Of a stretch of DNA of 64,000 nt, positions 19,833 through 62,331 are shown piece after piece; within the stretch, counting starts at the first letter, position 1; each line of letters starts with the position of its first letter. A program made the position numbers and the translations under genes. Below the pieces are notes generated by a model. That model worked only from the letters and a program-made list of their open reading frames with translations. It did not search any database and was not told where the DNA came from. Source of the stretch: a candidate division WOR-3 bacterium (GTDB taxonomy: Bacteria > Hydrothermota > Tepidihabitantia > Tepidihabitantales > Tepidihabitantaceae); contig JABLXZ010000002.1 in the NCBI GenBank assembly GCA_013177935.1, positions 62,001 through 126,000 of the forward strand. The letters run 5' to 3'.

Positions 19833-19860
19833 TTGACTGATTTGAGGGAAGTTTTATAAT
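19833..19860 (+). promoter_or_regulatory. Leaderless-type promoter of smpB
   Basis: TTGACT (19833-19838), 16 nt, TATAAT (19855-19860). The GTG start of smpB at 19867 follows after only 6 nt, so the transcript should begin at or next to the start codon. There is no Shine-Dalgarno sequence. Confidence 0.8.
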
Positions 19861-19866
19861 CAAGCG

Positions 19867-20319
19867 GTGAAGGTCGTTGCCACCAATCGCAAGGCACTGC
19901 GCGACTATACGGTGCACGATAAGGTTGAAGCCGGTATCGCCCTGTACGGCACCGAGGTAAAGTCGCTGCGGGAAGGCGGCGCCTCCCTTGACGGCGGTTA
20001 TGCAAGGGTGGAGAACGGCGAGGTGTTTCTCTACGATGTCAACATCGCACCTTATCGCCAGGGCAACATCTTTAACCGTGACCCCAAACGCCGGCGCAAA
20101 CTCCTCTTAAACAAAGACGAAATCAAGTGGCTCTTTGGCAAAACAACCCTGCGCGGTTTCACCCTCATTCCCCTGCGCCTCTATTTTAACGACCGCGGTA
20201 TCGCTAAGGTGGAACTGGCGCTGTGCAAGGGCAAAAAGGCGTTTGACCGCCGCGCCGAACTGAAGCGCCGGGCAATGGAGGAAGACGAGCGCCGCGCCGG
20301 TACAAAGGACGGGTATTGA
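19867..20319 (+). CDS. smpB: SsrA-binding protein SmpB
   Basis: 150 residues, the usual length. SmpB binds tmRNA and delivers it to stalled ribosomes for trans-translation. The core signatures are present: ATNRKALRDY, GIALYGTEVKSLREG (the conserved ExKSLR), YRQGNIFNRDPKRRRKLLL and KVELALCKGKKAFDRR, with a basic C-terminal tail. The GTG at 19867 is the only sensible start; it lies 6 nt after a TATAAT, making it a probable leaderless mRNA. Its stop overlaps the next gene's start region. The tmRNA gene is not in this window. Confidence 0.95.
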   Translation: MKVVATNRKALRDYTVHDKVEAGIALYGTEVKSLREGGASLDGGYARVENGEVFLYDVNIAPYRQGNIFNRDPKRRRKLLLNKDEIKWLFGKTTLRGFTLIPLRLYFNDRGIAKVELALCKGKKAFDRRAELKRRAMEEDERRAGTKDGY

Positions 20320-21713
20320 AGATGAGGCGGTTCTGGTTCCACCTGCTGGCACTTTTGTTTTTTATCTCGGGCATTGCCGGCTCAAGTAGTACCACCGGGT
20401 TGCGTCAAATAAACGGGATTGACTACCTGCCGGTTTCCGGGGTCGTGGCAAAATACGGCGGCAAATGTTACTGGGTGGAAAACCGGTTTATCACCATCCT
20501 GCCCGGCTCCGACTCCAGTTTTAACGAGTATCTGTTTATTCCGGACAGCGGTGTTGTCCTGCACAATGGCAAGCGGTTGAAACTGCCCATCGCGTCGATA
20601 GTTGATAAGGGGCAACTTTACCTGCCCGCAGTCCTCATCGCCGGAATGTTCCCAGAACTTGATGTGCCGGTGCTCACCACAACCGAAACCGATAAAAAGG
20701 GCGATACCCTCATCGTCCGGTTGTTGCTTAACCCGCTTCAGACCAAGTCGGGCGCCCTGCTTTTCTATCGGGACCGGAAGTCAAGCCTGGAACTGCGCCT
20801 CACGCTTGGCTGTCGTACCGACAGCGGGTTTGTTTCCCAGTTGCGTCTCATTTCTTTGACCGGCGGCACCACACTCAACGGCGTCCACTTAGACACGCTG
20901 GCGGTCGGCGTCAACCTTTACTGGAACTTTCGCCAGCCCACCCAGGACACGGTCCTATTGATGCCCAACGGCATTGAGGTCCGGCTCTGGCCCAGGCCGC
21001 AACGCCGGGTGACCAAAATCATCCTTGACCCCGGGCACGGCGGCAAAGACCCGGGTGCCATCGGCAGACTGGGCACCGAGGAGAAAACCATCGTCCTTGA
21101 TATCGCCCGGCGGGTGAAAAAACACCTGACCCAGCAGGGTTTTGAAGTCTTTTTGACCCGGGATTCCGATGAGTATGTTTCCCTTGCCGAACGGGCAGAA
21201 AAGGCGGCAAAGAGTGGTGCCGACCTGTTTGTATCAATCCACGCCAATGCCTCACCAAACCGCACCGCCACGGGTGTTGAAACTTACTTCCTGTCTGAAG
21301 CCAAAACCGACTGGGAACGGGCGGTAGCGGCACGGGAAAATGCGGTGTTTGAGCGGGAACTTGCCAACCCGCTTATCAAAGAGAACGACCCGGTAAGTCT
21401 CATCCTTGCCGATTTAGCCCAGAACGAGTTTCTCTTTGAGTCCAGCGAACTTGCCAGCCGGATTCAGGAGGCGGCGCTGTCCGCAATCTGCGCTGAAGAC
21501 CGCGGCGTCCGGCAGGCAAACTTCTATGTCCTGCGCAACATCTTTATGCCGGCGGTCCTGGTGGAGTGCGGGTTTCTTTCTAACCGCAAGGAGGAGAAAC
21601 TGCTGCGCAACCCTGAACATCGGGAAAAAATCGCCCGCGCCATTGCCCGCGGTGTTGCCCAATTTGCCAAAGATTACGAATGCCGGCTCAACGGCAACGG
21701 AAAAAAGCGATGA
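20316..21713 (+). CDS. N-acetylmuramoyl-L-alanine amidase (Amidase_3)
   Basis: 465 residues from a TTG at 20316, which overlaps the smpB stop by 4 nt and has AAAGGA 6 nt upstream; an ATG at 20322 is the alternative. A signal peptide (residues 6-22) exports it. Residues 30-225 resemble AMIN or copper-amine-oxidase-like N-domains (YLPVSGVVAKYGG). The catalytic domain starts at about 233: zinc ligands H241 (LDPGHGG), E255/E256 and H309 (SIHANAS), plus the late glutamate in VLVECGFLSN. It cleaves the amide bond between MurNAc and the peptide stem during cell separation or wall turnover. Coupled to smpB and an rluA-type gene. Confidence 0.9.
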   Translation: MKMRRFWFHLLALLFFISGIAGSSSTTGLRQINGIDYLPVSGVVAKYGGKCYWVENRFITILPGSDSSFNEYLFIPDSGVVLHNGKRLKLPIASIVDKGQLYLPAVLIAGMFPELDVPVLTTTETDKKGDTLIVRLLLNPLQTKSGALLFYRDRKSSLELRLTLGCRTDSGFVSQLRLISLTGGTTLNGVHLDTLAVGVNLYWNFRQPTQDTVLLMPNGIEVRLWPRPQRRVTKIILDPGHGGKDPGAIGRLGTEEKTIVLDIARRVKKHLTQQGFEVFLTRDSDEYVSLAERAEKAAKSGADLFVSIHANASPNRTATGVETYFLSEAKTDWERAVAARENAVFERELANPLIKENDPVSLILADLAQNEFLFESSELASRIQEAALSAICAEDRGVRQANFYVLRNIFMPAVLVECGFLSNRKEEKLLRNPEHREKIARAIARGVAQFAKDYECRLNGNGKKR

Positions 21714-25358: not shown

Positions 25359-26711
25359 CTAACTCGGTGCCACCATTCGGGTGACAACCTGTAAAATGTT
25401 TTCAACCTTTTGCCGGGTCCGGGCTTCGGCAACAACCCGTACAATCGGCTCGGTGTTACTCTTGCGGATGTGCGCCCACCAGTCCGCGCCCATAAGCCGC
25501 ACCCCTTCGGTCCGGTCAATACCGGTAAACGGCAACTTCCCTTCGAGCCGGGCGATAAACTCCTCAGCCTCCAATTTTCCCGCCGGCACCGTTGCCTTGG
25601 CAATGTGATACTCTGGCAACTCCTGTCTCAACTCGGAAAGCCTTTTCCCACTTGTCTTCATCAGCGCCACCAGGAGCGCCGCAGCAACCAGCCCATCCCG
25701 GGTCAAGTTCACCTCCGGCAGAATTACCCCGCCGTTACCCTCACCACCTAAAACCGCACCCCGCTCCAAAATCCCCTGAACCACAAACGCCTCACCCACT
25801 TTTGTGCGCGCCACCGCAACGCCAAACCGCTGAGCGATGTCCTCAATCATCCGGCTCGTAGAAAGATTCACCACCACCGGACCCTTACGCCGGTTGAGCA
25901 CAAAAAGTGCCGCCAGCGCCAGTGTTGCCTCCTCGCCTAACGGCACACCCATCTCATCAACGCAACTGAACCGGTCACCATCCGGGTCAAACGCAAAACC
26001 GGCATCAAGCCCTTCCTTACGCACCAGTTCGGCAAGCACCGTTAGATTCTCCGCCTTTGGCTCGGGTGCTCTTGGAAACCCTTTACCGGTCCCGGGCGAG
26101 CAGAAAACCTCTCTAACTTCACACCCCAGCCGTGTTAGAAGTTGGGGCGCAGCAAAAGACGCCGCACCATCAACCGCATCAACACCGATGCGCAACCCAT
26201 CACCCCTTATCCCCTGCAATAGAGAACTTTCGATAATCGCTGCAATGTGACCGGCAACCCCATCTGCCACCTCTTCGCTTGCGGATGTGCTTTTCGTTCC
26301 GCGTGCACGGTCAAATTTAACCTTCGCCACCTGTGCCTGAAAAATGTTAAACTCCTCTGGTGAAAGAAATCTGCCCTTACCATGCACAAACTTCATCCCG
26401 TTCCACTCCGCTGGATTGTGGCTCGCGGTAATCACCAGCCCGCCCGGCAAACCCTGCTGCCGCACAAAATGGACCACAGTTGGTGTTGGACATATCCCAA
26501 GGTCAACAACTGAACAACCCGCCTCTGCCAGACCTGCCTTTGCTGCCCTTACCAGTTCCGCACCGCTCAATCTCGCATCCCTGCCCACAGCCAGCCTGCC
26601 TCTGCCCACAAACTCACCAAAAGCCCGGGCAAACTCCTGAACCGTTTCCGGAAACAAATCCTTATTGACCACACCGCGCAAACCGGAAACGGAAAATATC
26701 AAACCACTCAT
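25359..26711 (-). CDS. glmM: Phosphoglucosamine mutase / phosphohexomutase
   Basis: 450 residues. It converts glucosamine-6-phosphate to glucosamine-1-phosphate. Visible are the N-terminal FSVSGLRGVVN, the phospho-serine loop TASHNP (Ser97), the Mg-binding DPDGDR, a GGEGNGGVI substrate loop and the phosphate-binding RKSNTEPIVRVV. The ASHNP/GGEGNG combination also fits phosphomannomutase-like members, but linkage to glmS favours GlmM. The ATG at 26711 lies 7 nt past a perfect TATAAT with no Shine-Dalgarno, so the operon mRNA is probably leaderless. Confidence 0.88.
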   Translation of the reverse strand: MSGLIFSVSGLRGVVNKDLFPETVQEFARAFGEFVGRGRLAVGRDARLSGAELVRAAKAGLAEAGCSVVDLGICPTPTVVHFVRQQGLPGGLVITASHNPAEWNGMKFVHGKGRFLSPEEFNIFQAQVAKVKFDRARGTKSTSASEEVADGVAGHIAAIIESSLLQGIRGDGLRIGVDAVDGAASFAAPQLLTRLGCEVREVFCSPGTGKGFPRAPEPKAENLTVLAELVRKEGLDAGFAFDPDGDRFSCVDEMGVPLGEEATLALAALFVLNRRKGPVVVNLSTSRMIEDIAQRFGVAVARTKVGEAFVVQGILERGAVLGGEGNGGVILPEVNLTRDGLVAAALLVALMKTSGKRLSELRQELPEYHIAKATVPAGKLEAEEFIARLEGKLPFTGIDRTEGVRLMGADWWAHIRKSNTEPIVRVVAEARTRQKVENILQVVTRMVAPS

Positions 26712-26718: not shown

Positions 26719-26747
26719 ATTATAAACCTTTGAATTGAATGCGTCAA
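26719..26747 (-). promoter_or_regulatory. Leaderless-type promoter of glmM-glmS
   Basis: Minus strand: TTGACG (26742-26747), 17 nt, TATAAT (26719-26724), then 7 nt to the ATG at 26711. No ribosome-binding site fits between them. Confidence 0.8.
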
Positions 26748-32471: not shown

Positions 32472-32843
32472 TACCTTTCCTCCGTATTTCTAACTGCCTA
32501 CAACTCGTTACACCAACCAGTATAATCTCATTATATCTCAAGCCCATCTGGGTAAATGTAAGTAATGTTGATTTTAAGTCAAGTTCCAGCACAATCCAGC
32601 ACCGGTATCCGCAACCATTTAGAGCCGGTTTTCTGCCTTTTTTAACGGTGTTTAACCCGACCGGTTCACCAGCGTTGCTATAACTTACTTTTTATCAATA
32701 ACCTGCCGATGTGCAAATAGACGGCGAAACCGCCTCCGAGACGGGGGAGGGGACCGTTTCCTATACCGTACCTGCTGCCCACTGTCCAAAGTCCATACGC
32801 ACCGCATTGACTTTTCCACCCGTTTTGATAAAATATATCGGTT
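32472..32843. other. Intergenic region between divergent mod and the propeller gene
   Basis: This 372-nt stretch holds the mod leader with its GGAGG, an AT-rich segment with possible minus-strand -10 boxes (TATAAT near 32530-32540), and GC-rich sequence with no credible ORF. At 32747-32760 is an inverted copy of the GAAACGGTCCCCTC repeat also found at 11366 and 48398. The last 40 nt hold the promoter of the next gene. Confidence 0.5.
32807..32834 (+). promoter_or_regulatory. Leaderless-type promoter of the propeller protein gene
   Basis: TTGACT (32807-32812), 16 nt, TAAAAT (32829-32834), then 9 nt to the ATG at 32844. No Shine-Dalgarno is present. Confidence 0.7.
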
Positions 32844-34001
32844 ATGAGATGGCGCGGAGTTGACCGAGAGTCACCATTAATAAAACCATTATTTATTACC
32901 CTGTTAATCTGTTCTGCCCTGCTCTTTTTCGGGCGGTGTGGCAAGCCCACCGTAGCCTGGAAGAAGGTGCTTGATACCAATACCGATGAGCAGGTCGCTG
33001 CCCTTTTGACCCGGGGTGATGAGGTTATCCTTGCCGGCACCCAGGGTAATCCGGAAAAGGGCAGGACCGTATGGTTTGTCCAGGTTCTGGACCGCAAGGG
33101 CAATTTTGTCCGGCGCCAGCCGTTTGCCGAAGGCAGTGTCAACATCTGCCGTTCGGCGGCGCTGGACCGCACCGGCAATCTGTTGCTTGGAGGTTATGCC
33201 AGATTCCACGACACCACCTTTGCCCTCCTCATCAAGGTCGCACCCGAGGGAAAAATCGTGTGGAAAAAGGGCATCGTGAGCGGCAACGCCTGCTGGGCAA
33301 ACGGTGTTTGCGCCCTTGACTCCAATGTCGTTTTCGGCGGTGGGGTGCAAACCGAATACGGGGCTGAAATTTTCCTGGGGATGCTTGACCCTGCCGGCAA
33401 AACGGTCTGGACCCGTAATTATCGAATCGACCAGGCGGCTGATGCGAAGGCGCTTGCCGCGCATCCGGACGGCAGTTTGACCGTGCTCGGTCAGGTCACC
33501 TCCTGCTCAGGCGAGGACATTCTGCTGATGCACACCAATCCGAAGGGCGAAACCCTCTGGACCCGGCGCTACGACTCGGGTGGTGATGACCTGCCCGCCG
33601 CGGTTGCGGTTGACCAGTTTGGCAATATCGTTGCGGTTGGCACCGCTCGCACCAAAGACTCAACCCGCTGTGTTGTTCTTGAATACACCCCGGATGGTGG
33701 TGCGGTGCGCAAGGTCGCATACGGCGCCGCGGCACAGGCTGAGGCGGGTGGTCTGTTCATTACCGAAAAGGGCGAAATCTTCATCAGCGGTGCCCTTATC
33801 ACCCCGAAACGGCGCAACCTGCTCGTGTTTGAGTACCAGCCGAACGCTCCGAGCGTGTGGGAGCGACACATCGACCTGGGTGGTGATGTCCGGGGTGTTG
33901 CCATCGCCTATGACCGGGATGTGTTTGTCGCGGCTGATGTAATGCGGCAGACCACCGATGTTGTCGCCCTGCGTCTTGACCGACCAGCATCCGCCCGTTA
34001 G
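32844..34001 (+). CDS. Exported beta-propeller protein of unknown function
   Basis: 385 residues. After a short polar start, residues 16-32 are hydrophobic (LFITLLICSALLFFGRCG) and end near a Cys, so it is a signal peptide or poor lipobox. The rest is a chain of propeller-like blades with recurring 'vlDrkGnfv', 'LDRTGNLLLGGYARF', 'AVDQFGNIVAVGTAR' and 'TWTRNY / LWTRRYDSGGDD' elements, like SBBP or delta-60 repeats. It resembles the first part of the protein at 62345-63823. It starts 9 nt past the -10 box. The next gene (V-ATPase D) has its own promoter. No enzymatic motif seen. Confidence 0.6.
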   Translation: MRWRGVDRESPLIKPLFITLLICSALLFFGRCGKPTVAWKKVLDTNTDEQVAALLTRGDEVILAGTQGNPEKGRTVWFVQVLDRKGNFVRRQPFAEGSVNICRSAALDRTGNLLLGGYARFHDTTFALLIKVAPEGKIVWKKGIVSGNACWANGVCALDSNVVFGGGVQTEYGAEIFLGMLDPAGKTVWTRNYRIDQAADAKALAAHPDGSLTVLGQVTSCSGEDILLMHTNPKGETLWTRRYDSGGDDLPAAVAVDQFGNIVAVGTARTKDSTRCVVLEYTPDGGAVRKVAYGAAAQAEAGGLFITEKGEIFISGALITPKRRNLLVFEYQPNAPSVWERHIDLGGDVRGVAIAYDRDVFVAADVMRQTTDVVALRLDRPASAR

Positions 34002-34008: not shown

Positions 34009-34036
34009 TTGACTTTGCCCGGTTCTCTGTTAAAAT
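34009..34036 (+). promoter_or_regulatory. Leaderless-type promoter of the V-ATPase D gene
   Basis: TTGACT (34009-34014), 16 nt, TAAAAT (34031-34036), then 7 nt to the ATG at 34044. Same geometry as at 32807. Confidence 0.75.
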
Positions 34037-34043: not shown

Positions 34044-34679
34044 ATGAGACTTTCGGTCAGTGCGACCCGGATGGAGTTGATGCGGCTGCGGCGCCGGCTC
34101 GTTATCGCCCGCCGCGGTCACAAACTGCTTAAAGACAAGCAGCAGGAGCTGATGCGCCGGCTTTTGGAACTGATTAGTGAAATCCGCCAGCACCGCGCCC
34201 GGGTGCGCAAAGAGATGCGCCAGGTTCTTGCCCAGTTTGCCCTTGCCCGCGCCGCGTACGAGCCGCAGTTTTTGGACGAGGCGGTGTTGATTCCAACCCG
34301 CAAGGTTGAGGTCACGGTGGCGACGCGCCGGGCGATGAACATTGAGGTGCCGGTTTTCACGAAAAAGGTCTCCGGTCGGCTCCGTTGCTACGGCTTTGCC
34401 ACAACCGCGCCGGTACTGGACCAGGCGCTTTTATCCCTTGACAACCTGCTCGATGCACTCTTTATCCTTGCCGAAAAGGAGAAGACACTTGAAATCCTTG
34501 CCGGTGAACTGGAACGGACCCGACGCCGGGTCAACGCCCTTGAATTTGTCTTAATCCCCTCAATTGAAGAGTCCATCCGGATGATAAACTTCAAACTGGC
34601 GGAAGCCGAGCGCCAGGACCTGACCCGGCTGATGCGCATCAAGGAGATTGTCCGCGGTGAGGAGCAAGGCAATGGCTAA
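34044..34679 (+). CDS. atpD: V/A-type ATP synthase subunit D
   Basis: 211 residues, family length. Subunit D is the central rotor shaft of V/A-type ATPases, threading the A3B3 head. The N-terminal coiled helix (SVSATRMELMRLRRRLVIARRGHKLLKDKQQELM) and the long C-terminal helix (RTRRRVNALEFVLIPSIEESIRMINFKL) are diagnostic. The other subunits are not in the window; the gene stands between a propeller gene and a VanZ-like gene, so the D subunit is detached from its usual operon here. It has its own leaderless-type promoter. In bacteria the gene is often called ntpD. Its stop overlaps the next start by 8 nt. Confidence 0.93.
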   Translation: MRLSVSATRMELMRLRRRLVIARRGHKLLKDKQQELMRRLLELISEIRQHRARVRKEMRQVLAQFALARAAYEPQFLDEAVLIPTRKVEVTVATRRAMNIEVPVFTKKVSGRLRCYGFATTAPVLDQALLSLDNLLDALFILAEKEKTLEILAGELERTRRRVNALEFVLIPSIEESIRMINFKLAEAERQDLTRLMRIKEIVRGEEQGNG

Positions 34680-41446: not shown

Positions 41447-41476
41447 TTGACAACTAACGATTATTCCTCTTAAATA
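41447..41476 (+). promoter_or_regulatory. Probable leaderless promoter of the second porV-like gene
   Basis: TTGACA (41447-41452), then TTAAAT or TAAATA after 17-18 nt, ending 5-6 nt before the ATG at 41482. No ribosome-binding site is visible. Divergent from the acpP promoter. Confidence 0.55.
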
Positions 41477-41481: not shown

Positions 41482-42375
41482 ATGACCTCAATTGTCCTTG
41501 CCCTGGCTTTGATTGCGATTGACCCCGGTGCCGGCACAACCGGCTTTGATTTTCTGTATATAACACCTACCGCGCGGGAGGCGGCGCTGGGCGGTGCCAG
41601 TACCGCCCAGCCGGATGGTGCCTTTGGTTTCTATTACAACCCGGCAGCCACCGGCGCAATGACCGGTGCCCAATTTACCTATATCAACTATCCGGCAGGC
41701 ATTCATCTCGGTTCTGCCGCCTACACCCAGCCGCTTGATAACACCAAAGGTATCGGCGTCGGCATCTATTATCTCAACTCCGGCACGATGAAGAAAACCA
41801 ATGAACAGGGCGAAGAACTGGGCACATTTGGCGCCTCTTTTACCTGCCTCAACCTCAGCGGCTCCTACCGGCTCATCAGCAACCTGTTAGTCGGCGCCGG
41901 TATCGCCGGGCTTTACGGCACAATCGACACCTTCTTCTCAGTTGGGCTTGTCGGCAACATCGGCGTCACTTATGAACCGCCGGTACCCGGTCTTTACCTC
42001 GGTTTTACCGCCCGAAACCTCGGTGCCGAAATAAAACCGTTTGGCGTTCGTGACCCGATGCCCTTGGAATTCAGCCTTGGCGCCTCCTGGCAACCAACCC
42101 CGGCGCTCAACCTCAACCTGAACCTGAACAAACCTATCAACAACCGCTTCAACATCCGTGCCGGCATTGAAGGCTGGGTCAATCAGTTTCTTGCCCTGCG
42201 CGCCGGTTACAACTCCCTTGGCTCAGACCTGATGGCGGGTACCGGTGCTGACCCTCTTGCCGGATTTGCCGCCGGCATTGGCGTCCGCTACAACCGCTAT
42301 CAACTGGACTACACCTTTGTGCCGATGGTCGCGCTCGGTTCTGTCCATCGCATCTCCTTCGGTTTCAGCCTGTAA
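41482..42375 (+). CDS. PorV/PorQ-type outer-membrane beta-barrel protein (second copy)
   Basis: 297 residues. The mature start is GFDFLYITPTAREAALGGASTA followed by FGFYYNPAAT, the same signature as the protein at 488-1555 but a clearly different sequence. The remainder is strand-rich and ends in GFSL, an aromatic barrel terminus. The N-terminal hydrophobic part (IVLALALIAIDPGAG) is short for a signal peptide. It lies 11 nt before a YhaM-like exonuclease gene and so leads a plus-strand operon with rsmG. Having two such proteins in 42 kb suggests more than one T9SS-linked or transport barrel. Confidence 0.8.
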   Translation: MTSIVLALALIAIDPGAGTTGFDFLYITPTAREAALGGASTAQPDGAFGFYYNPAATGAMTGAQFTYINYPAGIHLGSAAYTQPLDNTKGIGVGIYYLNSGTMKKTNEQGEELGTFGASFTCLNLSGSYRLISNLLVGAGIAGLYGTIDTFFSVGLVGNIGVTYEPPVPGLYLGFTARNLGAEIKPFGVRDPMPLEFSLGASWQPTPALNLNLNLNKPINNRFNIRAGIEGWVNQFLALRAGYNSLGSDLMAGTGADPLAGFAAGIGVRYNRYQLDYTFVPMVALGSVHRISFGFSL

Positions 42376-44080: not shown

Positions 44081-45714
<1,634 letters not shown>

Positions 45715-50409: not shown

Positions 50410-50438
50410 CTACCAATTTTGCGGGGCAAACCAATGAC

Positions 50439-51371: not shown

Positions 51372-51492
51372 TTCGAACGGCACCCAAGAGCGGACATACG
51401 GTTTCGCTTAGTCGGCCAAAATCCCGCTTGGGAGACACACTTATGTAAGTGGGTTTTAATCTCTAAATTTAAGATAAGAAAAGGAGAATTGT

Positions 51493-54787: not shown

Positions 54788-55423
54788 ATGAAGTATTCAG
54801 AGTTTAAGGATGCGGTAAGAGGTTTTCCGCTCATCACTTCAACCATTATCGATAACCTCAGCCGCAAAGCCCCAATTTTACGGGTCCAGTTAAGTGGCTG
54901 GCGGGAAAAGGGGTTAATCATCAGGCTAAAGCGGGGAATTTACATCCTGAATGCCGGCGATAGAAAGATTGAGCCCTCAAGAGTATTTCTCGCTAATGCC
55001 CTGTATTCACCTTCTTATGTGAGCACAACCTACGCTTTGGGCTTTTACGACTTAATTCCGGAAAAGGTCGCGGATGTAACTTCGGTTACGACCAAAAAGA
55101 CCGCGAAATTTATTAACCCCCTTGGCACCTTTGTCTATCAGCATCTGAAGCCCGAACTTTTCTTTGGCTTTACCGAAGTAAAGGATGAAAACCGCTTCCC
55201 GGTTTTTATTGCCGAGCCCGAGAAGGCGCTGCTTGACCTTATCTACCTGAACCTTGAGGATTTCAAGGGCAAAGAACCGGACTTTTTTAGTCTGTCCTAT
55301 CGGTTGCAAAACCTGAGCATCCTGAAAAAGAGCAAACTCGTCGCTTATGCCCGACGGTTTGAAAATCAATCGGTTATGGATGTATTAAAAAATTTTTTAA
55401 TTTTTCTGAAGAAAGGGGGTTAG
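54788..55423 (+). CDS. AbiEi-type antitoxin of a type IV toxin-antitoxin system
   Basis: 211 residues. The N-terminal winged helix (residues 1-60) with FKDAVRGFPLITSTIID, LRVQLSGWREKGLIIRLKRGIYIL is typical of AbiEi. The central STTYALGFYDLIPE and TTKKTAKFINPLGTFVYQHLKPELFFGF match the family. FIAEPEKALLDLIYLNL is the usual late motif. AbiEi represses its own operon and counters the toxin. The toxin gene follows after 4 nt. Upstream, TATAAA ends 8 nt before the ATG, so it may be leaderless; no Shine-Dalgarno is seen. GC content is nearer the core than in the genes before it. Confidence 0.88.
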   Translation: MKYSEFKDAVRGFPLITSTIIDNLSRKAPILRVQLSGWREKGLIIRLKRGIYILNAGDRKIEPSRVFLANALYSPSYVSTTYALGFYDLIPEKVADVTSVTTKKTAKFINPLGTFVYQHLKPELFFGFTEVKDENRFPVFIAEPEKALLDLIYLNLEDFKGKEPDFFSLSYRLQNLSILKKSKLVAYARRFENQSVMDVLKNFLIFLKKGG

Positions 55424-55427
55424 CCCG

Positions 55428-56222
55428 ATGCTGGAGGTAATTGAGAAAAGCATTGCCGGTATTGCCCGCCGGGAGGAAAAGGTTCATATCACCAGGGAGT
55501 TTTTACAGTTGCTTGTGTTAAAGATTCTTGATGACAAAGGGTATTTTAAAAACCTCGCCTTTGTCGGCGGGACCGCGCTCCGAGTGTTATATGGTTTGCG
55601 CCGGTTTTCCGAAGACCTTGACTTCTCCCTCATCGCTAAAAAGGACTATGATTTTGATAACCTGTTAGAAAAGGTTGCTTACGAATTGACGAAGGCGGGA
55701 TTTTCCTTAGATATTAAGAGTAGTACCGAAGGCGCGGTGCATTCGGCGCTGTTAAAATTTAAAGACATTCTCTTTCTTTTGGGGTTAGCCCACCAGAAGG
55801 GACAAAAACTTTCTATTAAACTGGAAATCGATTCCAACCCGCCCCGCGGCTGGCAAACAGAACTGTCCCTGGTGAACAAACATTTTGTTTTCACCGTTAA
55901 CCATTTTGACATCCCTTCGCTTTATGCCACCAAACTCCATGCCTGCTTTTTTAGAAAATATATCAAGGGCAGGGACTTTTATGACCTAATCTGGTATCTG
56001 GGCAAAAAGGTGTTACCCAATTTTGAACTCCTCAACAATGCGATTGAGCAGACCGAACACAAAAGGATAAATTTAAATAAAGAAGACTTCAATGACTTTT
56101 TAAGGGCAAGGCTGGCACGGGTTGATTTTGCCAGGGTCAAAAAAGATGTCGAAAGATTTATTGAGGATAAGAATGAACTCAAACTTCTTAACAAGGATTT
56201 GATATTAAAACTTATCGGCTGA
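55428..56222 (+). CDS. AbiEii/AbiGii-type nucleotidyltransferase toxin
   Basis: 264 residues. The nucleotidyltransferase core has FVGGTALRVLYGLRRFSEDLDFSL: GG (47-48) and the metal-binding SEDLDF (61-66, Asp63 and Asp65). The later IKLEIDSNPPRGWQ and LHACFFRKYIKGRDFYDLIWYL complete the pattern. AbiEii toxins transfer nucleotides to tRNA acceptor stems or other RNA and halt growth. The ATG lies 4 nt after the AbiEi stop with GGGGG some 12 nt upstream; the two form one operon. All catalytic residues are intact. Confidence 0.88.
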   Translation: MLEVIEKSIAGIARREEKVHITREFLQLLVLKILDDKGYFKNLAFVGGTALRVLYGLRRFSEDLDFSLIAKKDYDFDNLLEKVAYELTKAGFSLDIKSSTEGAVHSALLKFKDILFLLGLAHQKGQKLSIKLEIDSNPPRGWQTELSLVNKHFVFTVNHFDIPSLYATKLHACFFRKYIKGRDFYDLIWYLGKKVLPNFELLNNAIEQTEHKRINLNKEDFNDFLRARLARVDFARVKKDVERFIEDKNELKLLNKDLILKLIG

Positions 56223-56273
56223 AGACCAGCGCTTGCAACATTGCTGAGTAAAATTAGTGCTCCCGGCATAAAC

Positions 56274-56301
56274 TTGACAGAAAAATAACCCGGGTTAAAT
56301 T
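56274..56301 (+). promoter_or_regulatory. Promoter of the MTase-MjaI operon
   Basis: TTGACA (56274-56279), 16 nt, TAAATT (56296-56301), about 58 nt before the ATG at 56360, which has AAGGTGAT. This gene is leadered. Confidence 0.65.
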
Positions 56302-56359
56302 AAGTTGATTGAATTGGCAAACCGGCGGCTTTGAGTATGCCAAACTCTTAAGGTGATGT

Positions 56360-57661
56360 ATGAAGACCTGGCACCGGATAATCATCGGTGATGCGCGATG
56401 GATGAAGGAGGTTGAAGATGAATCAATTCATCTTATCGTTACCTCGCCCCCATACTGGCAATTAAAGGATTATGGCAATGGCAAGCAGATAGGGTTCAAT
56501 GACAGTTATGAGGATTATATCAATAACCTCAATCTGGTCTGGAATGAGTGCCATCGGGTATTACACAAAGGCTGCCGATTGTGTATTAACATTGGCGACC
56601 AGTTCGCCCGTTCGGTCTATTACGGCAGATACAAAGTCATTCCCATAAGAACCGAAATCATCAAGTTCTGCGAGAGCGCCGGGTTTGATTATATGGGAGC
56701 AATCATCTGGCAGAAGGTGACCACCTGCCACACAACCGGCGGCGCAACGGTGATGGGCTCTTATCCGTATCCCAGAAATGGCATCATTAAACTGGATTAT
56801 GAGTTCATCCTGATTTTTAAAAAATACGGCAATCCGCCCAGAGTCAGCAAGGAGATAAAGGAAATGTCAAAGTTGACTGAAGAGGAATGGAGCCGCTATT
56901 TTACCGGGCACTGGAAATTTTCCGGCGAAAGGCAGGACAAACACCTCGCGATGTTCCCCGAAGAGTTGCCCAAGCGGCTCATTAAGATGTTCAGTTTTGT
57001 TGGCGATACGGTTCTTGACCCTTTTCTTGGCAGCGGGACGACATCTTTAGCCGCCAAAAATCTCAACAGAAATTCCATCGGCTACGAGATAAATGAGGAG
57101 TTCCTGCCGATAATAAAAGAAAAACTGGGCATAACGCAGAGGGCAATGTTTCCGGATGCAACCTTTGAAATTATCAAACAGGATGAACCAAATATAGATT
57201 TCAAAGAGGAGATTAAAAAGTTGCCTTACATCTTCAAGGACCCTATAAGATTTGATAAGAAGATTGACCCGAAAAAATTAAGGTTCGGTTCAAGGATTGA
57301 TAACACCACTCCTGAGCGCGAAACCTATTATACGGTAAAAGAAATAGTTTCGCCCGAGATATTGGTTTTAAACAACGGATTAAAAATCCAACTCCTTGGT
57401 GTGAAGGAGAAACCGGGTAAAAATGGTGCGGCGATTCAATATATAAGAGAAAAGACAAAAGGGCAAAAGGTTTTTATGAAATTTGACGAAGTAAAGCACG
57501 ACCAGAATAATAACTTACTTTGTTATCTCTATTTGCAGAATAAGACCTTCTTAAATGCCCATTTGATTAAAAAGGGTCTGGTTGATGTGGATACGACAAT
57601 TAATTATAAATACCGGACAAAATTCTTAACTCTTCAGAAAGGGTTAAAGAACACAATATGA
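56360..57661 (+). CDS. DNA methyltransferase with C-terminal SNase-like domain
   Basis: 433 residues. Residues 1-260 are a DNA methyltransferase with the catalytic TSPPYW (28-33) before the SAM-binding LDPFLGSGTTSLAA (219-232). The SPPY form is seen in N4-cytosine and some N6-adenine enzymes; with the MjaI-type endonuclease next door, CTAG N4-cytosine methylation is likely. Residues about 322-430 (LKIQLLGVKEKPGKNGAAIQ, NNLLCYLYLQNKTFLNAHLI) resemble the staphylococcal-nuclease fold. However, residues expected for catalysis appear absent: 'LLGVKEKP' replaces the Asp-Thr-Pro-Glu segment and no Arg precedes the LCYLYL strand. That domain may bind nucleic acid rather than cut. It overlaps the endonuclease start by 4 nt. 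Confidence 0.8.
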   Translation: MKTWHRIIIGDARWMKEVEDESIHLIVTSPPYWQLKDYGNGKQIGFNDSYEDYINNLNLVWNECHRVLHKGCRLCINIGDQFARSVYYGRYKVIPIRTEIIKFCESAGFDYMGAIIWQKVTTCHTTGGATVMGSYPYPRNGIIKLDYEFILIFKKYGNPPRVSKEIKEMSKLTEEEWSRYFTGHWKFSGERQDKHLAMFPEELPKRLIKMFSFVGDTVLDPFLGSGTTSLAAKNLNRNSIGYEINEEFLPIIKEKLGITQRAMFPDATFEIIKQDEPNIDFKEEIKKLPYIFKDPIRFDKKIDPKKLRFGSRIDNTTPERETYYTVKEIVSPEILVLNNGLKIQLLGVKEKPGKNGAAIQYIREKTKGQKVFMKFDEVKHDQNNNLLCYLYLQNKTFLNAHLIKKGLVDVDTTINYKYRTKFLTLQKGLKNTI

Positions 57662-58242
57662 AGGTCAGAATCACGGTTGAAGAGATAAGAAAATATCTTG
57701 ATATAGAAACGCCCGAATTCCCTAAGTATGTCGCACCACTTATCAATTTAGCCAATCAGTATGCCCAGGGAACGCGGCCGAAAGTTGTCGGGCAGATGAG
57801 TGAACTTATCCAGGAGTTTGAAGGGAAGACACTTTCCGAGTGGGAACAGTGGTATTTAGAGAAAAAACCCGATGCAATCAGAAATGCTACAGAAAAGATA
57901 TTACAGAAATTGAGGGAAATCAAAAACTCACTTGACCGGATTGACCGAACAATGGTTGAACGCTGGGTCCGCGATTTGGTAATTGTTAAAACTTTTGCCG
58001 GATTAAGGTTTCAGGAGGCGATACTAAAAAAGGGCGCGGAGTTAAAAGGAACAGATTACCGGTTGGCAGAGCCGGAAGAGGAATCAAAAGGGATTGATGG
58101 TTACATTGGCGATGTGCCTGTATCAATAAAACCCGACACCTATGATGTTAAAGCATCATTACCCGAACACATTGGCATCAAAATCATCTATTACAAAAAG
58201 ATTGATGATGGGATTGAGGTAGATTATGGAGAAATTCTATAA
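57658..58242 (+). CDS. MjaI-family type II restriction endonuclease (predicted CTAG)
   Basis: 194 residues. LINLANQYAQGTRPKVVGQ and SELIQEFEGKTLSEWEQWY are typical of the MjaI endonuclease family. A later GIDGYIGDVPVSIKPDTY with its Asp and Lys may be the active site. MjaI cuts CTAG. The start overlaps the methyltransferase stop as ATGA, giving a translationally coupled R-M pair. The last 14 codons (KIDDGIEVDYGEIL) are duplicated 402 bp downstream as part of the 294-bp repeat, without the rest of the gene. Confidence 0.75.
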   Translation: MKVRITVEEIRKYLDIETPEFPKYVAPLINLANQYAQGTRPKVVGQMSELIQEFEGKTLSEWEQWYLEKKPDAIRNATEKILQKLREIKNSLDRIDRTMVERWVRDLVIVKTFAGLRFQEAILKKGAELKGTDYRLAEPEEESKGIDGYIGDVPVSIKPDTYDVKASLPEHIGIKIIYYKKIDDGIEVDYGEIL

Positions 58243-58491
58243 TGAGTCGCTGCCTAACAGCGGATAAAAAATTTTCAAAATGCATGAAAGGAGGTGATAA
58301 ACATGGCAAGTTGTCCGGGGAAAAGGGATAATCATACCTGTTCTAGTACGCTCTACAGGTGCAAGAAATGCGGGAATATTGGATGTGACCAGGGTAAACC
58401 GGGCAAGTGCACAAACCAGGGTTTTAGCTCGGGGAAGTGCTTAAAATGTGGCTCAACGGGTCAAAAGGAATTGTTCCGTTAAGCGCATTTA
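58198..58491 (+). repeat. 294-bp direct repeat, copy 1
   Basis: Identical by eye to 58600-58893 (offset 402). It spans the last 14 codons of the MjaI-type gene, the GCCTAAC half site (58252) and the whole zinc-ribbon gene. The 108 bp between the copies holds the second promoter module. Confidence 0.95.
58303..58482 (+). CDS. Small cysteine-rich zinc-ribbon protein (copy 1)
   Basis: 59 residues from the ATG at 58303, where AAAGGAGGTGAT, an almost perfect anti-Shine-Dalgarno complement, lies 4 nt upstream; a GTG 9 nt before it overlaps the Shine-Dalgarno and is not the start. Cysteines are arranged C-x8-C (CPGKRDNHTC), then CKKCGNIGC, GKC and GKCLKCGS: a zinc-ribbon-like fold with seven to nine cysteines. 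No signal peptide. An identical gene follows 402 bp later. I do not know the function. Small zinc ribbons next to R-M genes can be regulators, but nothing here proves it. Confidence 0.7.
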   Translation: MASCPGKRDNHTCSSTLYRCKKCGNIGCDQGKPGKCTNQGFSSGKCLKCGSTGQKELFR

Positions 58492-58510
58492 AGGATGGCT
58501 TTGTTCCCCC

Positions 58511-58599
58511 AATACTCTTGCTTGACTTTTTAAAATGTGAGGTATACTAAGAACAGTGGAATGATATCAGCATCATCAGTAAAAGAACAAAAATTCCTT
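58511..58599 (+). repeat. Promoter-bearing repeat module (copy 2)
   Basis: AATACTCTTGC, TTGACT (58522-58527), 15 nt, TATACT (58543-58548), then AATGATATCAGCATCATCAG and TAAAAGAACAAAAATTCCTT. It ends exactly where the second 294-bp repeat begins (58600), which marks a recombination joint. Confidence 0.65.
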
Positions 58600-58893
58600 A
58601 AGATTGATGATGGGATTGAGGTAGATTATGGAGAAATTCTATAATGAGTCGCTGCCTAACAGCGGATAAAAAATTTTCAAAATGCATGAAAGGAGGTGAT
58701 AAACATGGCAAGTTGTCCGGGGAAAAGGGATAATCATACCTGTTCTAGTACGCTCTACAGGTGCAAGAAATGCGGGAATATTGGATGTGACCAGGGTAAA
58801 CCGGGCAAGTGCACAAACCAGGGTTTTAGCTCGGGGAAGTGCTTAAAATGTGGCTCAACGGGTCAAAAGGAATTGTTCCGTTAAGCGCATTTA
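58600..58893 (+). repeat. 294-bp direct repeat, copy 2
   Basis: Exact copy of 58198-58491. It carries an orphan 3' end of the endonuclease gene and the second zinc-ribbon gene. Downstream sequence then diverges (CGGCTGTATTGTG) before the third promoter module starts at 58912. Confidence 0.95.
58705..58884 (+). CDS. Small cysteine-rich zinc-ribbon protein (copy 2)
   Basis: Identical in nucleotides to the gene at 58303, including its strong Shine-Dalgarno. It may be expressed from the promoter at 58522. Perfect identity means a recent duplication, or gene conversion. Confidence 0.7.
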   Translation: MASCPGKRDNHTCSSTLYRCKKCGNIGCDQGKPGKCTNQGFSSGKCLKCGSTGQKELFR

Positions 58894-58911
58894 CGGCTGT
58901 ATTGTGTCCTT

Positions 58912-58939
58912 AATACTCTTGCTTGACTTTTTAAAATGT
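58912..58939 (+). repeat. Promoter-bearing repeat module, truncated (copy 3)
   Basis: AATACTCTTGCTTGACTTTTTAAAATGT is shared with copy 2 and then the sequence leaves the repeat. TTGACT (58923-58928), 15 nt, TATAAT (58944-58949) would still act as a promoter, but it lies inside the first codons of the following ORF. Confidence 0.6.
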
Positions 58940-60222
58940 TAGATATAATAAAAAATGTAACCAATCCTACTGCTCACCTTTCTCATCTCACTATTAAGGA
59001 TTATATACTCTGGTTTACAAAACATGGTTCTATCGAGTCTGAATTTTATGGTAGAGAAAATTATAGCAATAAGATTGTGTATCTCAAATCGTTTGACACC
59101 GAACGAATTAAACCAGAACTGAAAATTGGGAATGAAGTATATACTAATGATTATTATGAAAAAATTCCTTTTGGGCACGTCTTTCCCCCAGAGTGTTATA
59201 AGCAACATGACTTGACAGGAAAACAAGCAGACCTGCAAGATCAAGGAAAAGATGTTGACAAAATAGACTTAATCTGCAAAAGGGTATATCTATCAAACGA
59301 AACCGGCAAGCAAAAACCTGATGTTCCATTTCAAATAGTATTTTATATTGAAGGAGACGAGGCAAAAAGATCTTATAACAAAATGCTCATTCCAAAAGGA
59401 AGGGTGGCAAAACTACATTATGACCAATACACAGTAGAAAGCAGATATGGTCTATGGGCATGTAAGGATTTTATTCCTGTTGTAAACATAACAAGTTGGA
59501 TTGAAACACGCGGGATTAAGTCCCGATTTCATGCATTTATAAATTGTGATAAATTTGAACTTACAGCCAATAGAAGCACTATTGATAATACCCCTTCTGA
59601 CATTATTTCCAGTGTAAAAGAACGCACAAAAGAGATATACAGAGAAATTATCCAAAAATCAGATGAATATAAAGAAATTGAAAGGTTGATAGAGGAAGAA
59701 GAGAAACAACGGCAATTAGAGGAAGATAAGAAAGAATTTGCAAAAAGGATTAAAAATTTAAGTAAACTTAAGAAATGCGTCTATAAAAATATAACGTTAT
59801 TTGAACCAAAGACAGAAGCAGAGGTATATGGACTTATTATGAGGTTAATGGCAGTGAACCCTGACTTATTTGACTTTGAAATATTAGATTATCGGACCGA
59901 TAAGGGAATTGATTTTTTAGTAAGGAAGAAGAGCGACCCTCCAGAACTTCCAAGTTATAAATATGTAGAATTGAAACATATTTTAAGGGGGTCTTTCAAT
60001 CACTGCTTTATGTACCTTCATAAAGTAATATGTTTTAAGATTGAAGATGGGCTTAACCGAGTTAAGGGGATTGATGGCATTCGCATCATAACCTCATCTA
60101 CAGATAGAGGTGAAACAAAGTTCTATTTAACGCCAGAATCACCTTCTCCCGACCAAGATAATATTGAAATTATCGTTTTAGAGACATTTCTTAGGGAAAA
60201 GCTAAAGTTAGAATTTACATAA
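58936..60222 (+). CDS. 5'-truncated Hsp90/MORC-like ATPase with C-terminal PD-(D/E)XK domain
   Basis: 428 residues in an open frame from an ATG at 58936 that overlaps the promoter repeat and has no Shine-Dalgarno, so the true N-terminus is uncertain. LWACKDFIPVVNITSWIETRGIKSRFHAFINCDKFELTANRSTI is typical of the middle domain of Hsp90-like ATPases (sacsin/MORC-type), which should follow a ~250-residue ATP-binding domain that is missing. A coiled coil rich in Glu and Lys follows (about 235-285). The C-terminal PD-(D/E)XK-like motif is D326 (GIDFLV) with E345-L-K347 (YVELKH). Likely a defence ATPase-nuclease that lost its 5' half by recombination at the repeat. Whether the residual protein is made is unknown. 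Confidence 0.55.
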   Translation: MLDIIKNVTNPTAHLSHLTIKDYILWFTKHGSIESEFYGRENYSNKIVYLKSFDTERIKPELKIGNEVYTNDYYEKIPFGHVFPPECYKQHDLTGKQADLQDQGKDVDKIDLICKRVYLSNETGKQKPDVPFQIVFYIEGDEAKRSYNKMLIPKGRVAKLHYDQYTVESRYGLWACKDFIPVVNITSWIETRGIKSRFHAFINCDKFELTANRSTIDNTPSDIISSVKERTKEIYREIIQKSDEYKEIERLIEEEEKQRQLEEDKKEFAKRIKNLSKLKKCVYKNITLFEPKTEAEVYGLIMRLMAVNPDLFDFEILDYRTDKGIDFLVRKKSDPPELPSYKYVELKHILRGSFNHCFMYLHKVICFKIEDGLNRVKGIDGIRIITSSTDRGETKFYLTPESPSPDQDNIEIIVLETFLREKLKLEFT

Positions 60223-60258: not shown

Positions 60259-60366
60259 GGCGTATAAAACAGCATAAAAAGGTTGTGCTTACGGCACATT
60301 CCCAAATATTTGCTTCGCATAACATTGATTTTACAAAAAATTCGCCTAAATAGCCCCTGCCTGCAC

Positions 60367-60394
60367 TTGACATTAACCCATTGACAGGCATCCT
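60367..60394 (+). promoter_or_regulatory. Leaderless-type promoter, alkD 5' repeat copy 2
   Basis: TTGACA (60367-60372), 16 nt, CATCCT (60389-60394), 6 nt, GTG (60401). Nearly the same sequence as at 61611, from the -35 through some 170 nt of coding sequence. Confidence 0.65.
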
Positions 60395-60400
60395 GGAATA

Positions 60401-61549
60401 GTGCGGTGTGATGAAATCGTAAAGCGGTTGCGGTCGCTTGCCAATCCTCGAGCGGTTGCCGGAATGGCACGATTCGGGATTAATACGAAGCGGGCTTACG
60501 GGGTGTCAATCCCCGATTTAAGAAGACTCGCGAAGGAAATCGGCAGGGACCATAAACTGGCGCAGAACAATATTATGAAGAAATTAATGGTCACTATTTT
60601 GGTTGTTTCAACAGTCCTGATGTCAGGATGTATAAATCTACCTTCCACTAACCGAAACTACACGCAGGATATGCGCGATTTTATCCAGAATATTAGTACC
60701 TATGCAAAGGGAATAAAACCTAACTTCATTGTCATTCCCCAGAATGGGCAAGAACTGATAACTGAAAACGGAGAACCAACCGGACCGCCAGCAACGAATT
60801 ATCTTAATGCTATTGATGGTTTGGCGCGGGAGGATTTGTTCTACGGATACGATGAAGATAATGTGGCAACACCCCAGCCGGAACGAAACTATATGATACC
60901 CTTTATTGATATTGCCAAGAATAACGGTAAAAGGGTTTTAGTCGTTGACTATTGTTGGACTCAATCGTTTGTGGACGACTCCTATAATCAGAACGCAGTT
61001 AGAGGCTACATATCATTCGCGGCAGAACATAGGGAACTGGATAACATTCCGTCGTACCCGACGACTCCCTACAATGCCAATCTTGACAATATTACTTCGC
61101 TAGCCGAAGCGAAGAACTTTTTGTATTTGATTAACCCCGGCTCTTATCCTACAAAGGCAGCATTTCTAAGTGCAATCCAGAACACAGATTATGATGTTGT
61201 CATTATCGACCTCTTCTACGGCACCGAGCAACTAAATCCTGGCGACATCGCATCATTGAAGGTTAAGGTTAATGGCGGTGTTCGTCTGGTAATTGCTTAT
61301 ATGAGTATTGGCGAAGCAGAAGATTACAGATATTATTGGGAGGCAGAATGGGAAACACACCAACCTGCCTGGTTGGTAGAGGAAAATCCGGATTGGCCTG
61401 GCAACTATAAAGTCCGGTACTGGGATAAGAATTGGCAGAGCATCATCTATGGAAACGATAATTCCTATCTAAAAAAGATTCTTGATGCAGGATTTGACGG
61501 CGTGTATCTCGATATTGTCGATGCATTTGAATACTTTGAAGGTCAATAA
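60401..61549 (+). CDS. GH114/TM1410-like lipoprotein, in-frame fused to the first ~56 residues of the alkD-like protein
   Basis: 382 residues from the GTG at 60401. Residues 1-56 (MRCDEIVKRLRSLANPRAVA ... HKLAQ) are near-identical to the alkD-like protein at 61645, then the sequence changes to MKKLMVTILVVSTVLMSGC, a signal peptide with an ideal lipobox (LMSGC), at M59 (ATG at 60575). That internal start has no clear Shine-Dalgarno. The rest matches TM1410-type/GH114 (polygalactosaminidase-like) proteins: VVIIDLFYGTEQLNPGDI, LVIAYMSIGEAEDYRYYW and GFDGVYLDIVDAFEYF. Since a signal peptide cannot work from residue 59, the lipoprotein is probably translated from 60575; the fusion may be an accident of recombination that gave the gene a promoter. 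Confidence 0.7.
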   Translation: MRCDEIVKRLRSLANPRAVAGMARFGINTKRAYGVSIPDLRRLAKEIGRDHKLAQNNIMKKLMVTILVVSTVLMSGCINLPSTNRNYTQDMRDFIQNISTYAKGIKPNFIVIPQNGQELITENGEPTGPPATNYLNAIDGLAREDLFYGYDEDNVATPQPERNYMIPFIDIAKNNGKRVLVVDYCWTQSFVDDSYNQNAVRGYISFAAEHRELDNIPSYPTTPYNANLDNITSLAEAKNFLYLINPGSYPTKAAFLSAIQNTDYDVVIIDLFYGTEQLNPGDIASLKVKVNGGVRLVIAYMSIGEAEDYRYYWEAEWETHQPAWLVEENPDWPGNYKVRYWDKNWQSIIYGNDNSYLKKILDAGFDGVYLDIVDAFEYFEGQ

Positions 61550-61610
61550 TCATGCTGTGGCAAGAAAGCCATTCCAAAATGAATGGCGCCTTTATGGCAC
61601 CCACCTCTAC

Positions 61611-61638
61611 TTGACATTAACCCATTGACAGGTATCCT
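61611..61638 (+). promoter_or_regulatory. Leaderless-type promoter of the alkD-like gene (repeat copy 3)
   Basis: TTGACA (61611-61616), 16 nt, TATCCT (61633-61638), 6 nt, GTG (61645). A hairpin GCCATTC-CAAAAT-GAATGGC (61568-61587) just upstream may end the preceding transcript. Confidence 0.7.
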
Positions 61639-61644
61639 GCAATA

Positions 61645-62331
61645 GTGCAATGCAATGAAATCATAAAGCGGTTGCGGGCGCTTGGCAAACCGAAAGCGGT
61701 TGCCGGAATGGCACGATTCGGGATTAATACGAAGCGGGCTTACGGAGTGTCAATTCCCGATTTGAGAAGACTGGCAAAGGAAATTGGTAAGAACCATAAA
61801 CTGGCGCAGGAACTGTGGAAAATAGATAACCGGGAAACGCGCATCCTTGCCGGTATGGTTGATGAGCCGGAACTTGTGACTGAAGACCAGATGGAGAAGC
61901 GGGTTAAGGATTTTGCGGACTGGGAGGTCTGTGACCAGGTCTGCCAGAACCTTTTTATTTATACCAAGTTTGCCTATCAGAAGGCGCAGGAGTGGAGCCG
62001 GCGTGATGAGGAGTTTGTTAAGCGGGCAGGTTTTGCCTTGATGGCGTGGCTGGCGTTCAAGGATAAGACGGCAAAGGATGAGGCGTTTGAGCGGTTTCTG
62101 CCCGCTATCAAAAGGGAGGCAACGGATAATAGAAATTTTGTGAAGAAGGCGGTGAACTGGGCGTTAAGGCAGATTGGTAAAAGAAGTATTTACCTGAATG
62201 AGAAGGCACTAAAAACGGCAAGGGAGGTTGAAAAGATTGAATCTAAGAGTGCCAGATGGATTGCCCGGGATGCAATCAAGGAGCTAACAAGCAATGCCGT
62301 GCAGGAGCGGCTGAAAAAGGTGGGCGGTTAA
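61645..62331 (+). CDS. DNA alkylation repair protein (AlkD-like)
   Basis: 228 residues, family length, starting with a GTG 6 nt past the -10 box; no Shine-Dalgarno, so leaderless. AlkD enzymes are HEAT-repeat glycosylases that excise N3- and N7-alkylated bases. IKRLRALGKPKAVAGMARFGINTKRAYGVSIPDLRRLAKEIG starts it and KRVKDFADWEVCDQVCQNLF, RRDEEFVKRAGFALMAWLAF and NFVKKAVNWALRQIGKRS (the catalytic-region Trp and Arg) follow. This is the intact parent of the two 5' copies at 54518 and 60367. Its GC-richness agrees with the core genome. Confidence 0.9.
   Translation: MQCNEIIKRLRALGKPKAVAGMARFGINTKRAYGVSIPDLRRLAKEIGKNHKLAQELWKIDNRETRILAGMVDEPELVTEDQMEKRVKDFADWEVCDQVCQNLFIYTKFAYQKAQEWSRRDEEFVKRAGFALMAWLAFKDKTAKDEAFERFLPAIKREATDNRNFVKKAVNWALRQIGKRSIYLNEKALKTAREVEKIESKSARWIARDAIKELTSNAVQERLKKVGG

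What the first reader, a model, noticed from the sequence alone, without database searches (positions are those of the whole stretch)
19833..61647. Widespread leaderless transcription signalled by -10 boxes 5-9 nt before start codons
At smpB (TATAAT, GTG 6 nt later), glmM (TATAAT, 7 nt), the propeller gene at 32844 (TAAAAT, 9 nt), V-ATPase D (TAAAAT, 7 nt), porV2 at 41482 (5-6 nt), alkD (TATCCT, 6 nt) and nearly deoC (12 nt), a 16-17 nt spaced promoter ends right before the start codon and no Shine-Dalgarno is present. In the same window many other genes (groL, acpP, the zinc ribbons) have strong Shine-Dalgarno sequences. That both modes serve conserved housekeeping genes is notable and affects gene-start calling in this lineage.
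Basis: partly seen in the sequence, partly recalled or inferred. Interest (0 to 1): 0.75.

Follow-up and report, generated by a model that had tools for sequence, protein, structure and literature searches.

The report
Leaderless gene starts in WOR-3 bacteria
In this uncultured bacterium and many of its relatives a sizeable minority of genes, some of them housekeeping genes, carry their promoter directly against the start codon, so their messenger RNA should begin with the protein-coding part itself; this way of starting genes is known from other bacteria, and here it shows up in a poorly studied phylum.

Summary
At smpB, glmM, the propeller gene and V-ATPase D a -35/-10 pair with a 16-17 nt spacer ends 6-9 nt before the start codon. 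Weaker: porV/Q (-10 TTAAAT) and alkD (TATCCT); deoC (12 nt) would keep a short leader. The distance is not random: in the 1.96 Mb genome the strict motif precedes ATG by 5-8 nt 35 times, by 15-18 nt 14 times, by 25-28 nt 6 times. In a 464 kb sample 26 of 175 unit-first genes have a promoter 5-8 nt before a possible start, against 3-5 at control distances. Of 147 genomes of the phylum (nearest named: WOR-3 / Stahlbacteria) 142 have more at 5-8 than 15-18; 18 genomes labelled otherwise have 0-7. The arrangement is seen at glmM in 23 of 30 genomes and at smpB in 16 of 28, against 3 of 70 smpB genes labelled as other phyla. The Shine-Dalgarno system is intact. Best reading: sigma-70 promoters giving leaderless mRNAs for about 9% of genes (13% of unit-first genes), likely lower bounds. 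No RNA 5' ends were available. A known kind; my searches found no report for this phylum.

The parts
19833..19838 (+). -35 box TTGACT of smpB
   Evidence: arrangement in 16 of 28 genomes, own included
19855..19860 (+). -10 box TATAAT of smpB, 6 nt before GTG
   Evidence: for relatives
19867..20319 (+). smpB, predicted leaderless, GTG start
   Evidence: NCBIfam smpB; no other in-frame start from -12 to +7 codons
26742..26747 (-). -35 box TTGACG of glmM
26719..26724 (-). -10 box TATAAT of glmM, 7 nt before ATG
   Evidence: 23 of 30 genomes, own included
25359..26711 (-). glmM (phosphoglucosamine mutase), predicted leaderless
   Evidence: TIGR03990 449 bits, cut-off 439
32807..32812 (+). -35 box TTGACT of propeller gene
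32829..32834 (+). -10 box TAAAAT, 9 nt before ATG
   Evidence: 9 nt gap also in G111, with TAAACT
32844..34001 (+). beta-propeller-like repeat protein, predicted leaderless or with a leader of 2-3 nt
   Evidence: sub-cut-off SBBP/delta-60 repeat hits; homologue in G111 starts at the same residue; against: my coding-only caller preferred GTG 32967
34009..34014 (+). -35 box TTGACT of V-ATPase D
34031..34036 (+). -10 box TAAAAT, 7 nt before ATG
   Evidence: same in G111
34044..34679 (+). V-type ATP synthase subunit D, predicted leaderless
   Evidence: TIGR00309 over cut-off
41447..41475 (+). weaker candidate: TTGACA-17-TTAAAT, 6 nt before ATG of PorV/PorQ family gene
   Evidence: G111 has TTGACA and a TTTAAT-like box there
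41482..42375 (+). PorV/PorQ family protein
   Evidence: NF033709 over cut-off
61611..61638 (+). weaker candidate: TTGACA-16-TATCCT, 6 nt before GTG of alkD
   Evidence: no relative examined (no match in the 60 kb of G111 looked at)
61645..62331 (+). AlkD-type DNA alkylation repair enzyme; Pfam match begins at residue 6 of the GTG start
   Evidence: PF08713; my coding-only caller preferred ATG 61708
13422..13450 (-). deoC promoter TTGACA-17-TAAAAT, 12 nt before ATG: short leader, not leaderless
   Evidence: 12 nt gap also in G111
44125..45658 (-). 16S rRNA gene with intact anti-Shine-Dalgarno 3' end (GGATCACCTCCTTT)

Best explanation
These are ordinary sigma-70-type promoters placed so that the transcription start falls on, or 1-3 nt before, the start codon. 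RNA polymerase binds TTGAC/TANAAT (spacer 16-17 nt: shown as sequence) and should start about 7 nt after the -10 box, on the A or G of ATG/GTG (inferred from promoter geometry, recalled). The mRNA then has no leader and no Shine-Dalgarno site, and the ribosome should start on the 5'-terminal start codon (inferred). The same cell keeps a normal SD system for many other genes (shown: SD enrichment, intact anti-SD, S1). The arrangement recurs gene by gene, for example at glmM and smpB, in several families of the phylum WOR-3 (shown).
For: Distance peak in the genome sample (26 of 175 unit-first genes against 3-5 at controls) and in the whole genome (35 against 14 and 6 for ATG; 26 against 12 for GTG). 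The -35 box lies at the right spacing: of 25 -10 boxes 5-8 nt before a start, 16 have TTGACA (at most 1 mismatch) at 16 nt and 3 at 17 nt, with 3 hits in all at the other 15 spacings tested. In the G000 sample 13 of 17 strict 5-8 sites open an ORF of 80 codons or more, against 1 of 7 control-distance sites and 21-25% of all ATG/GTG. Phylum: 142 of 147 genomes have more at 5-8 than at 15-18, 65 of 65 in the class. Gene level: glmM 23 of 30 (controls 2, 0, 1), smpB 16 of 28 (controls 2, 0, 0), smpB labelled as other phyla 3 of 70. smpB has no other in-frame start nearby.
Against: No transcript data. The 15-18 nt control class contains short SD leaders (visible), so the contrast is not against pure background; in G088, 16 of 28 control-distance sites also open long ORFs, against 23 of 27 at 5-8. 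G138 (another class) shows no 5-8 peak (1 of 103 unit-first genes; 7 in the 8-11 bin) and G054 a small one (4 of 55). 19 of 147 genomes have 6 or fewer strict sites. An unbiased hexamer ranking in G000 puts SD hexamers first and only one -10-like hexamer (TACAAT, 3 counts) among the top 14; in G088 TATAAT ranks second. 12 of 28 smpB and 7 of 30 glmM genes do not pass the test.
Confidence: 0.87

Rival explanations
1. The boxes are real promoters, but transcription starts a few nt earlier or translation a few nt later than assumed, so the mRNAs have very short leaders (about 3-10 nt) rather than none.
For: deoC (12 nt) and the propeller gene (9 nt) sit at the long end; some glmM relatives have gaps of 10 nt or more; the 8-11 bin in G000 is also raised (18 of 175).
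Against: The peak is at 5-8 nt, which puts +1 on the start codon for a standard promoter; smpB has exactly 6 nt in 11 of the 16 passing genomes.
Confidence: 0.08
2. Chance: AT-rich spacers in front of start codons look like -10 boxes.
For: The -10 hexamer alone occurs at many distances at a low level.
Against: Reversed pattern 0 against 35, shifted distances 14 and 6, a sharp -35 spacing, recurrence at the same genes over deep divergence.
Confidence: 0.01
3. These promoters are real but minor; the genes are mainly read from upstream promoters as leadered or operon mRNAs and are started without SD.
For: 7 of 148 genes inside presumed operons also have a 5-8 nt site, against 0, 1 and 3 at controls.
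Against: Sites concentrate in unit-first genes (26 of 175); smpB is divergent from its neighbour with a 97 nt gap. Conservation of the promoter-to-start distance would be unexplained.
Confidence: 0.04

Closest known systems
Leaderless ('TA-led') genes of Actinobacteria and Deinococcus-Thermus (Zheng et al. 2011, PMC3160421; abstract and section 7 read)
   Same: TA-like signal about 10 bp before the start codon, mixed with SD-led genes in one genome
   Different: The groups listed as holding leaderless genes (207 of 953 bacterial genomes) do not include WOR-3; about 20% and 40% of genes there against an excess of about 9% here by a stricter and different method; there translation genes are less often leaderless
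-10 region adjacent to ORFs in Deinococcus-Thermus (PMC12340547; outline, section 11 and search passages read)
   Same: -10 motif against the ORF, mixed with ribosome-binding-site genes; there supported by transcript levels and eGFP reporters
   Different: WOR-3, Stahlbacteria do not occur in its main text; whether -35 boxes go with its motif I did not read
Bacteria with predicted leaderless transcription by GeneMarkS-2 (21.6% of bacterial species, as quoted in the StartLink paper PMC9581028; passages read)
   Same: Leaderless mode beside SD-led genes in one genome
   Different: I saw no WOR-3 genome named in the passages read and could not check its genome list

Membership tests
Leaderless bacterial genes | -10 (and -35) promoter element at a fixed short distance before the start codon | tested here: met
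Leaderless bacterial genes | The start codon next to the promoter is the true one | tested here: met
   Shown for smpB only: no other in-frame start nearby, homologous N-termini mostly align from residue 1. Supported for glmM, V-ATPase D and the propeller gene by homologues and for alkD by its Pfam match
Leaderless bacterial genes | No SD in the available space | tested here: met
   follows from the position of the -10 box
Leaderless bacterial genes | mRNA 5' end at the start codon (0-5 nt) | not testable with these tools
   no RNA data
Leaderless bacterial genes | Translated from the 5'-terminal start codon | not testable with these tools
   needs an expression assay
Loss of the Shine-Dalgarno system (seriously considered) | Degenerate anti-SD or missing S1 | tested here: not met
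   GGATCACCTCCTTT at the 16S end, rpsA 584 bits over the cut-off of 577, SD enriched at called starts

The most novel reading that the evidence does not exclude
Leaderless initiation is an old trait of much of the phylum WOR-3 and is fixed gene by gene: glmM and smpB have a promoter abutting the start codon in several families, with glmM proteins down to 37% identical, and use GUG as well as AUG as leaderless start codon (GTG at 13 of 16 passing smpB and 10 of 23 passing glmM genes). That suggests selection for a leaderless mRNA at these genes and a translation machinery that accepts 5'-terminal GUG well.
Probability: 0.5. Interest if true: 0.55.

Novelty: new member of a known kind. Interest (0 to 1): 0.42.

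Why it matters
It adds an uncultured phylum to the lineages with many predicted leaderless genes, gives a tested genome-wide signal for calling gene starts there (callers that look mainly for SD may misplace some), and offers two genes, glmM and smpB, whose leaderless layout recurs over deep divergence, so that one can ask why some genes stay leaderless while others use SD.

Tried and rejected
A first count used every promoter-like site regardless of gene frame; it was replaced by tests tied to candidate starts. My gene caller scores coding content only and prefers ATG (bonus 1.0 against -0.8 for GTG), so the apparent excess of GTG among leaderless starts in G000 (26 of 61 against 57 of 319 called starts) is partly confounded; with the 15-18 nt counts subtracted it is 14 of 35. 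I do not claim it as shown.

A hit at window 58923-58957 was first noted as a missed leaderless gene (note). Its ATG is followed at once by a stop and is out of frame with ORF 58936-60222 (sequence), so it was dropped. The correcting note wrongly counts it among the 4 of 17 strict sites without an ORF: it has too short a spacer for that pattern and is not in that set.

The smpB relatives are the 30 best of 129 matching genomes, own genome included, so they lean to close relatives; two of the 30 had no start placed and were left out, as were five of the 75 loci labelled as other phyla. The glmM set is 30 of 31 genomes with a match, own included, mostly family and order. By eye several of the 7 glmM misses have a promoter just outside the limits (gap of 10 or more, or a weak box); they are counted as misses. 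L199, L202, L204 and L205 count as hits with the start 1-2 codons from the aligned position. L027-L031 (two WOR-3 or near, one Stahlbacteria, two labelled Thermotogaceae) were not in the 75. The Stahlbacteria genome G148 lists one promoter-ATG sequence 11 times, which inflates its 75.

The G054 and G138 samples (160 and 240 kb) are small and my caller found few genes there (74 and 142); their rates are rough. Matches of alkD, the 60401 ORF and ORF 58957 were not found in the 60 kb of G111 looked at.

Papers: no paper in the held library contains both 'WOR-3' and 'leaderless' or 'Stahlbacteria' and 'leaderless'; a wider search on candidate phyla listed three papers, none of them with the word leaderless. 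Subscription papers and supplements were not searched.

Full report
Setting. The window is C2:62001-126000 of a 1,956,872-base genome in 5 contigs.

The sites. Four are good promoters: smpB (TTGACT-16-TATAAT-6-GTG), glmM (TTGACG-17-TATAAT-7-ATG), the propeller gene (TTGACT-16-TAAAAT-9-ATG), V-ATPase D (TTGACT-16-TAAAAT-7-ATG). Two have weak -10 boxes: the PorV/Q gene (TTAAAT) and alkD (TATCCT). deoC has a 12 nt gap, also 12 in G111, and should have a leader of about 5 nt. In the window only smpB, glmM and V-ATPase D meet the strict pattern used below.

Is the distance special in this genome? I took the window and 20 stretches of 20 kb (464 kb) and called genes by coding content and start-codon type, without upstream signals: 339 genes. 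A -10-like hexamer peaks 6-7 nt before the start. Of 175 genes first in their unit (divergent neighbour or gap of 60 nt or more), 26 have a promoter ending 5-8 nt before a possible start, against 4, 5 and 3 at 14-17, 24-27 and 34-37 nt; of 148 other genes 7, against 0, 1 and 3 (Poisson p for the first group 2.4e-13). That is an excess of about 22 of 175 unit-first genes and 28 of 323 genes, probably a lower bound because weaker promoters are missed. Where a -10 box lies 5-8 nt before a start (25 cases), TTGACA with at most one mismatch lies at 16 nt in 16 and at 17 nt in 3, with 3 hits at all other spacings from 10 to 26. In the whole genome the strict pattern TTGAC-N17-19-TANAAT is followed by ATG at 5-8 nt 35 times, at 15-18 nt 14 times, at 25-28 nt 6 times; the patterns read backwards give 0, 1 and 1. 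For GTG: 26 at 5-8 and 12 at 15-18, backwards 3 and 2. In the G000 sample, 13 of 17 strict 5-8 sites open an ORF of at least 80 codons, against 1 of 7 at the control distances; in the G088 sample 23 of 27 against 16 of 28, so there the control distances hold many real starts too.

The SD system is present. SD 4-mers lie 3-10 nt before 107 of 338 called starts against 31 of 338 in a control window. The 16S gene lies in the window (44125-45658) and ends in GGATCACCTCCTTT. An 18-base pattern for this end was found in 86 of 147 genomes of the phylum, among them members of f9 and f10, the families richest in leaderless sites; why 61 lack it (incomplete drafts or another base) was not checked. A full-length rpsA scores 584 bits against a cut-off of 577. 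So this is a mixed system, not loss of SD.

Relatives. The strict pattern with ATG at 5-8 nt was counted in 147 genomes of the phylum and compared with 15-18 nt: 8,041 against 2,877 in all; more at 5-8 in 142, equal in 3, fewer in 2; in the window's class 65 of 65. The own family f1 has a median of 33 (18 genomes), families f9 and f10 medians of 183 (4 genomes) and 146 (23 genomes), not scaled to genome size; 19 genomes, all outside the class, have 6 or fewer. In 18 genomes not labelled WOR-3 or Stahlbacteria (Latescibacterota, Omnitrophota, Krumholzibacteriia, Planctomycetes, alphaproteobacteria and others) there are 0-7 per genome; base composition was not matched. A sample of G088 (family f10) gives 28 of 161 unit-first genes at 5-8 nt against 8, 4 and 5; there TATAAT is the second most enriched hexamer at that distance in an unbiased ranking, whereas in G000 that ranking is ruled by SD hexamers. 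G138, outside the class, shows no such peak (1 of 103) and G054 a small one (4 of 55; controls 0, 1, 0), so the habit varies within the phylum.

Recurrence gene by gene. glmM: 30 genomes, own included; 23 have a promoter 5-8 nt before the homology-placed start, against 2, 0 and 1 at three control distances; protein identity to the window's glmM falls to 37%. smpB: 28 genomes with a placed start, own included, from the 30 best of 129 matches; 16 pass (gap 5-9 nt), against 2, 0 and 0; 11 of the 16 have exactly 6 nt. smpB genes labelled as other phyla: 3 of 70. In G000 there is no other in-frame start from 12 codons before to 7 codons after the smpB GTG, and most homologous proteins align from the first residue. 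V-ATPase D and the propeller gene have the same gap in the same-genus genome G111, and PorV/Q a similar weak box.

Mechanism. Shown: promoter elements, their spacing, their preferred distance to the start, recurrence at the same genes. Inferred: with a 6-7 nt gap a sigma-70 polymerase would start on the first base of the start codon (A or G), so the mRNA is leaderless and must be started by ribosome binding to its 5' end. A leader of 1-5 nt cannot be excluded for gaps of 8-12 nt.

Known or new. Leaderless genes are well described: 207 of 953 bacterial genomes in Zheng et al. (PMC3160421, abstract and section 7 read), Deinococcus-Thermus with experiments (PMC12340547, outline, section 11 and passages read), and 21.6% of bacterial species predicted by GeneMarkS-2 as quoted in PMC9581028 (passages read). 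I found no paper that joins WOR-3 or Stahlbacteria with leaderless genes in the held library. I file it as a new member of a known kind. What is more than routine is the depth of gene-level recurrence and the use of GTG.

Noticed in passing
48277-60222: Low-GC stretch (bins of 45%, 37% and 39% against 51-56% upstream) beside a tRNA gene (48277-48350) with GmrSD-type, AbiEii-type, N6/N4 methylase with nuclease domain and sigma-70 genes and a sub-cut-off AAA hit: looks like a defence island.
   Followed up: partly
60331-60568 and 61572-61813: The promoter and first codons of alkD are duplicated; the copy runs into a GH114 glycoside-hydrolase domain, giving a chimeric ORF 60401-61549.
   Followed up: partly
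L030 genome (G148): One promoter-plus-ATG sequence is listed 11 times, identical, in the Stahlbacteria MAG CSMAG_461: perhaps a mobile element that carries its own leaderless promoter.
   Followed up: no
L029, L031: Two MAGs labelled Thermotogaceae have SmpB 55-57% identical to the WOR-3 one, among the closest in the collection, but the one searched (L029) has none of the leaderless pattern.
   Followed up: no
families f9 and f10 of the phylum: Promoter-start sites are about four to six times as many per genome (medians, not scaled to size) as in the window's own family; these would be the best organisms to study.
   Followed up: partly
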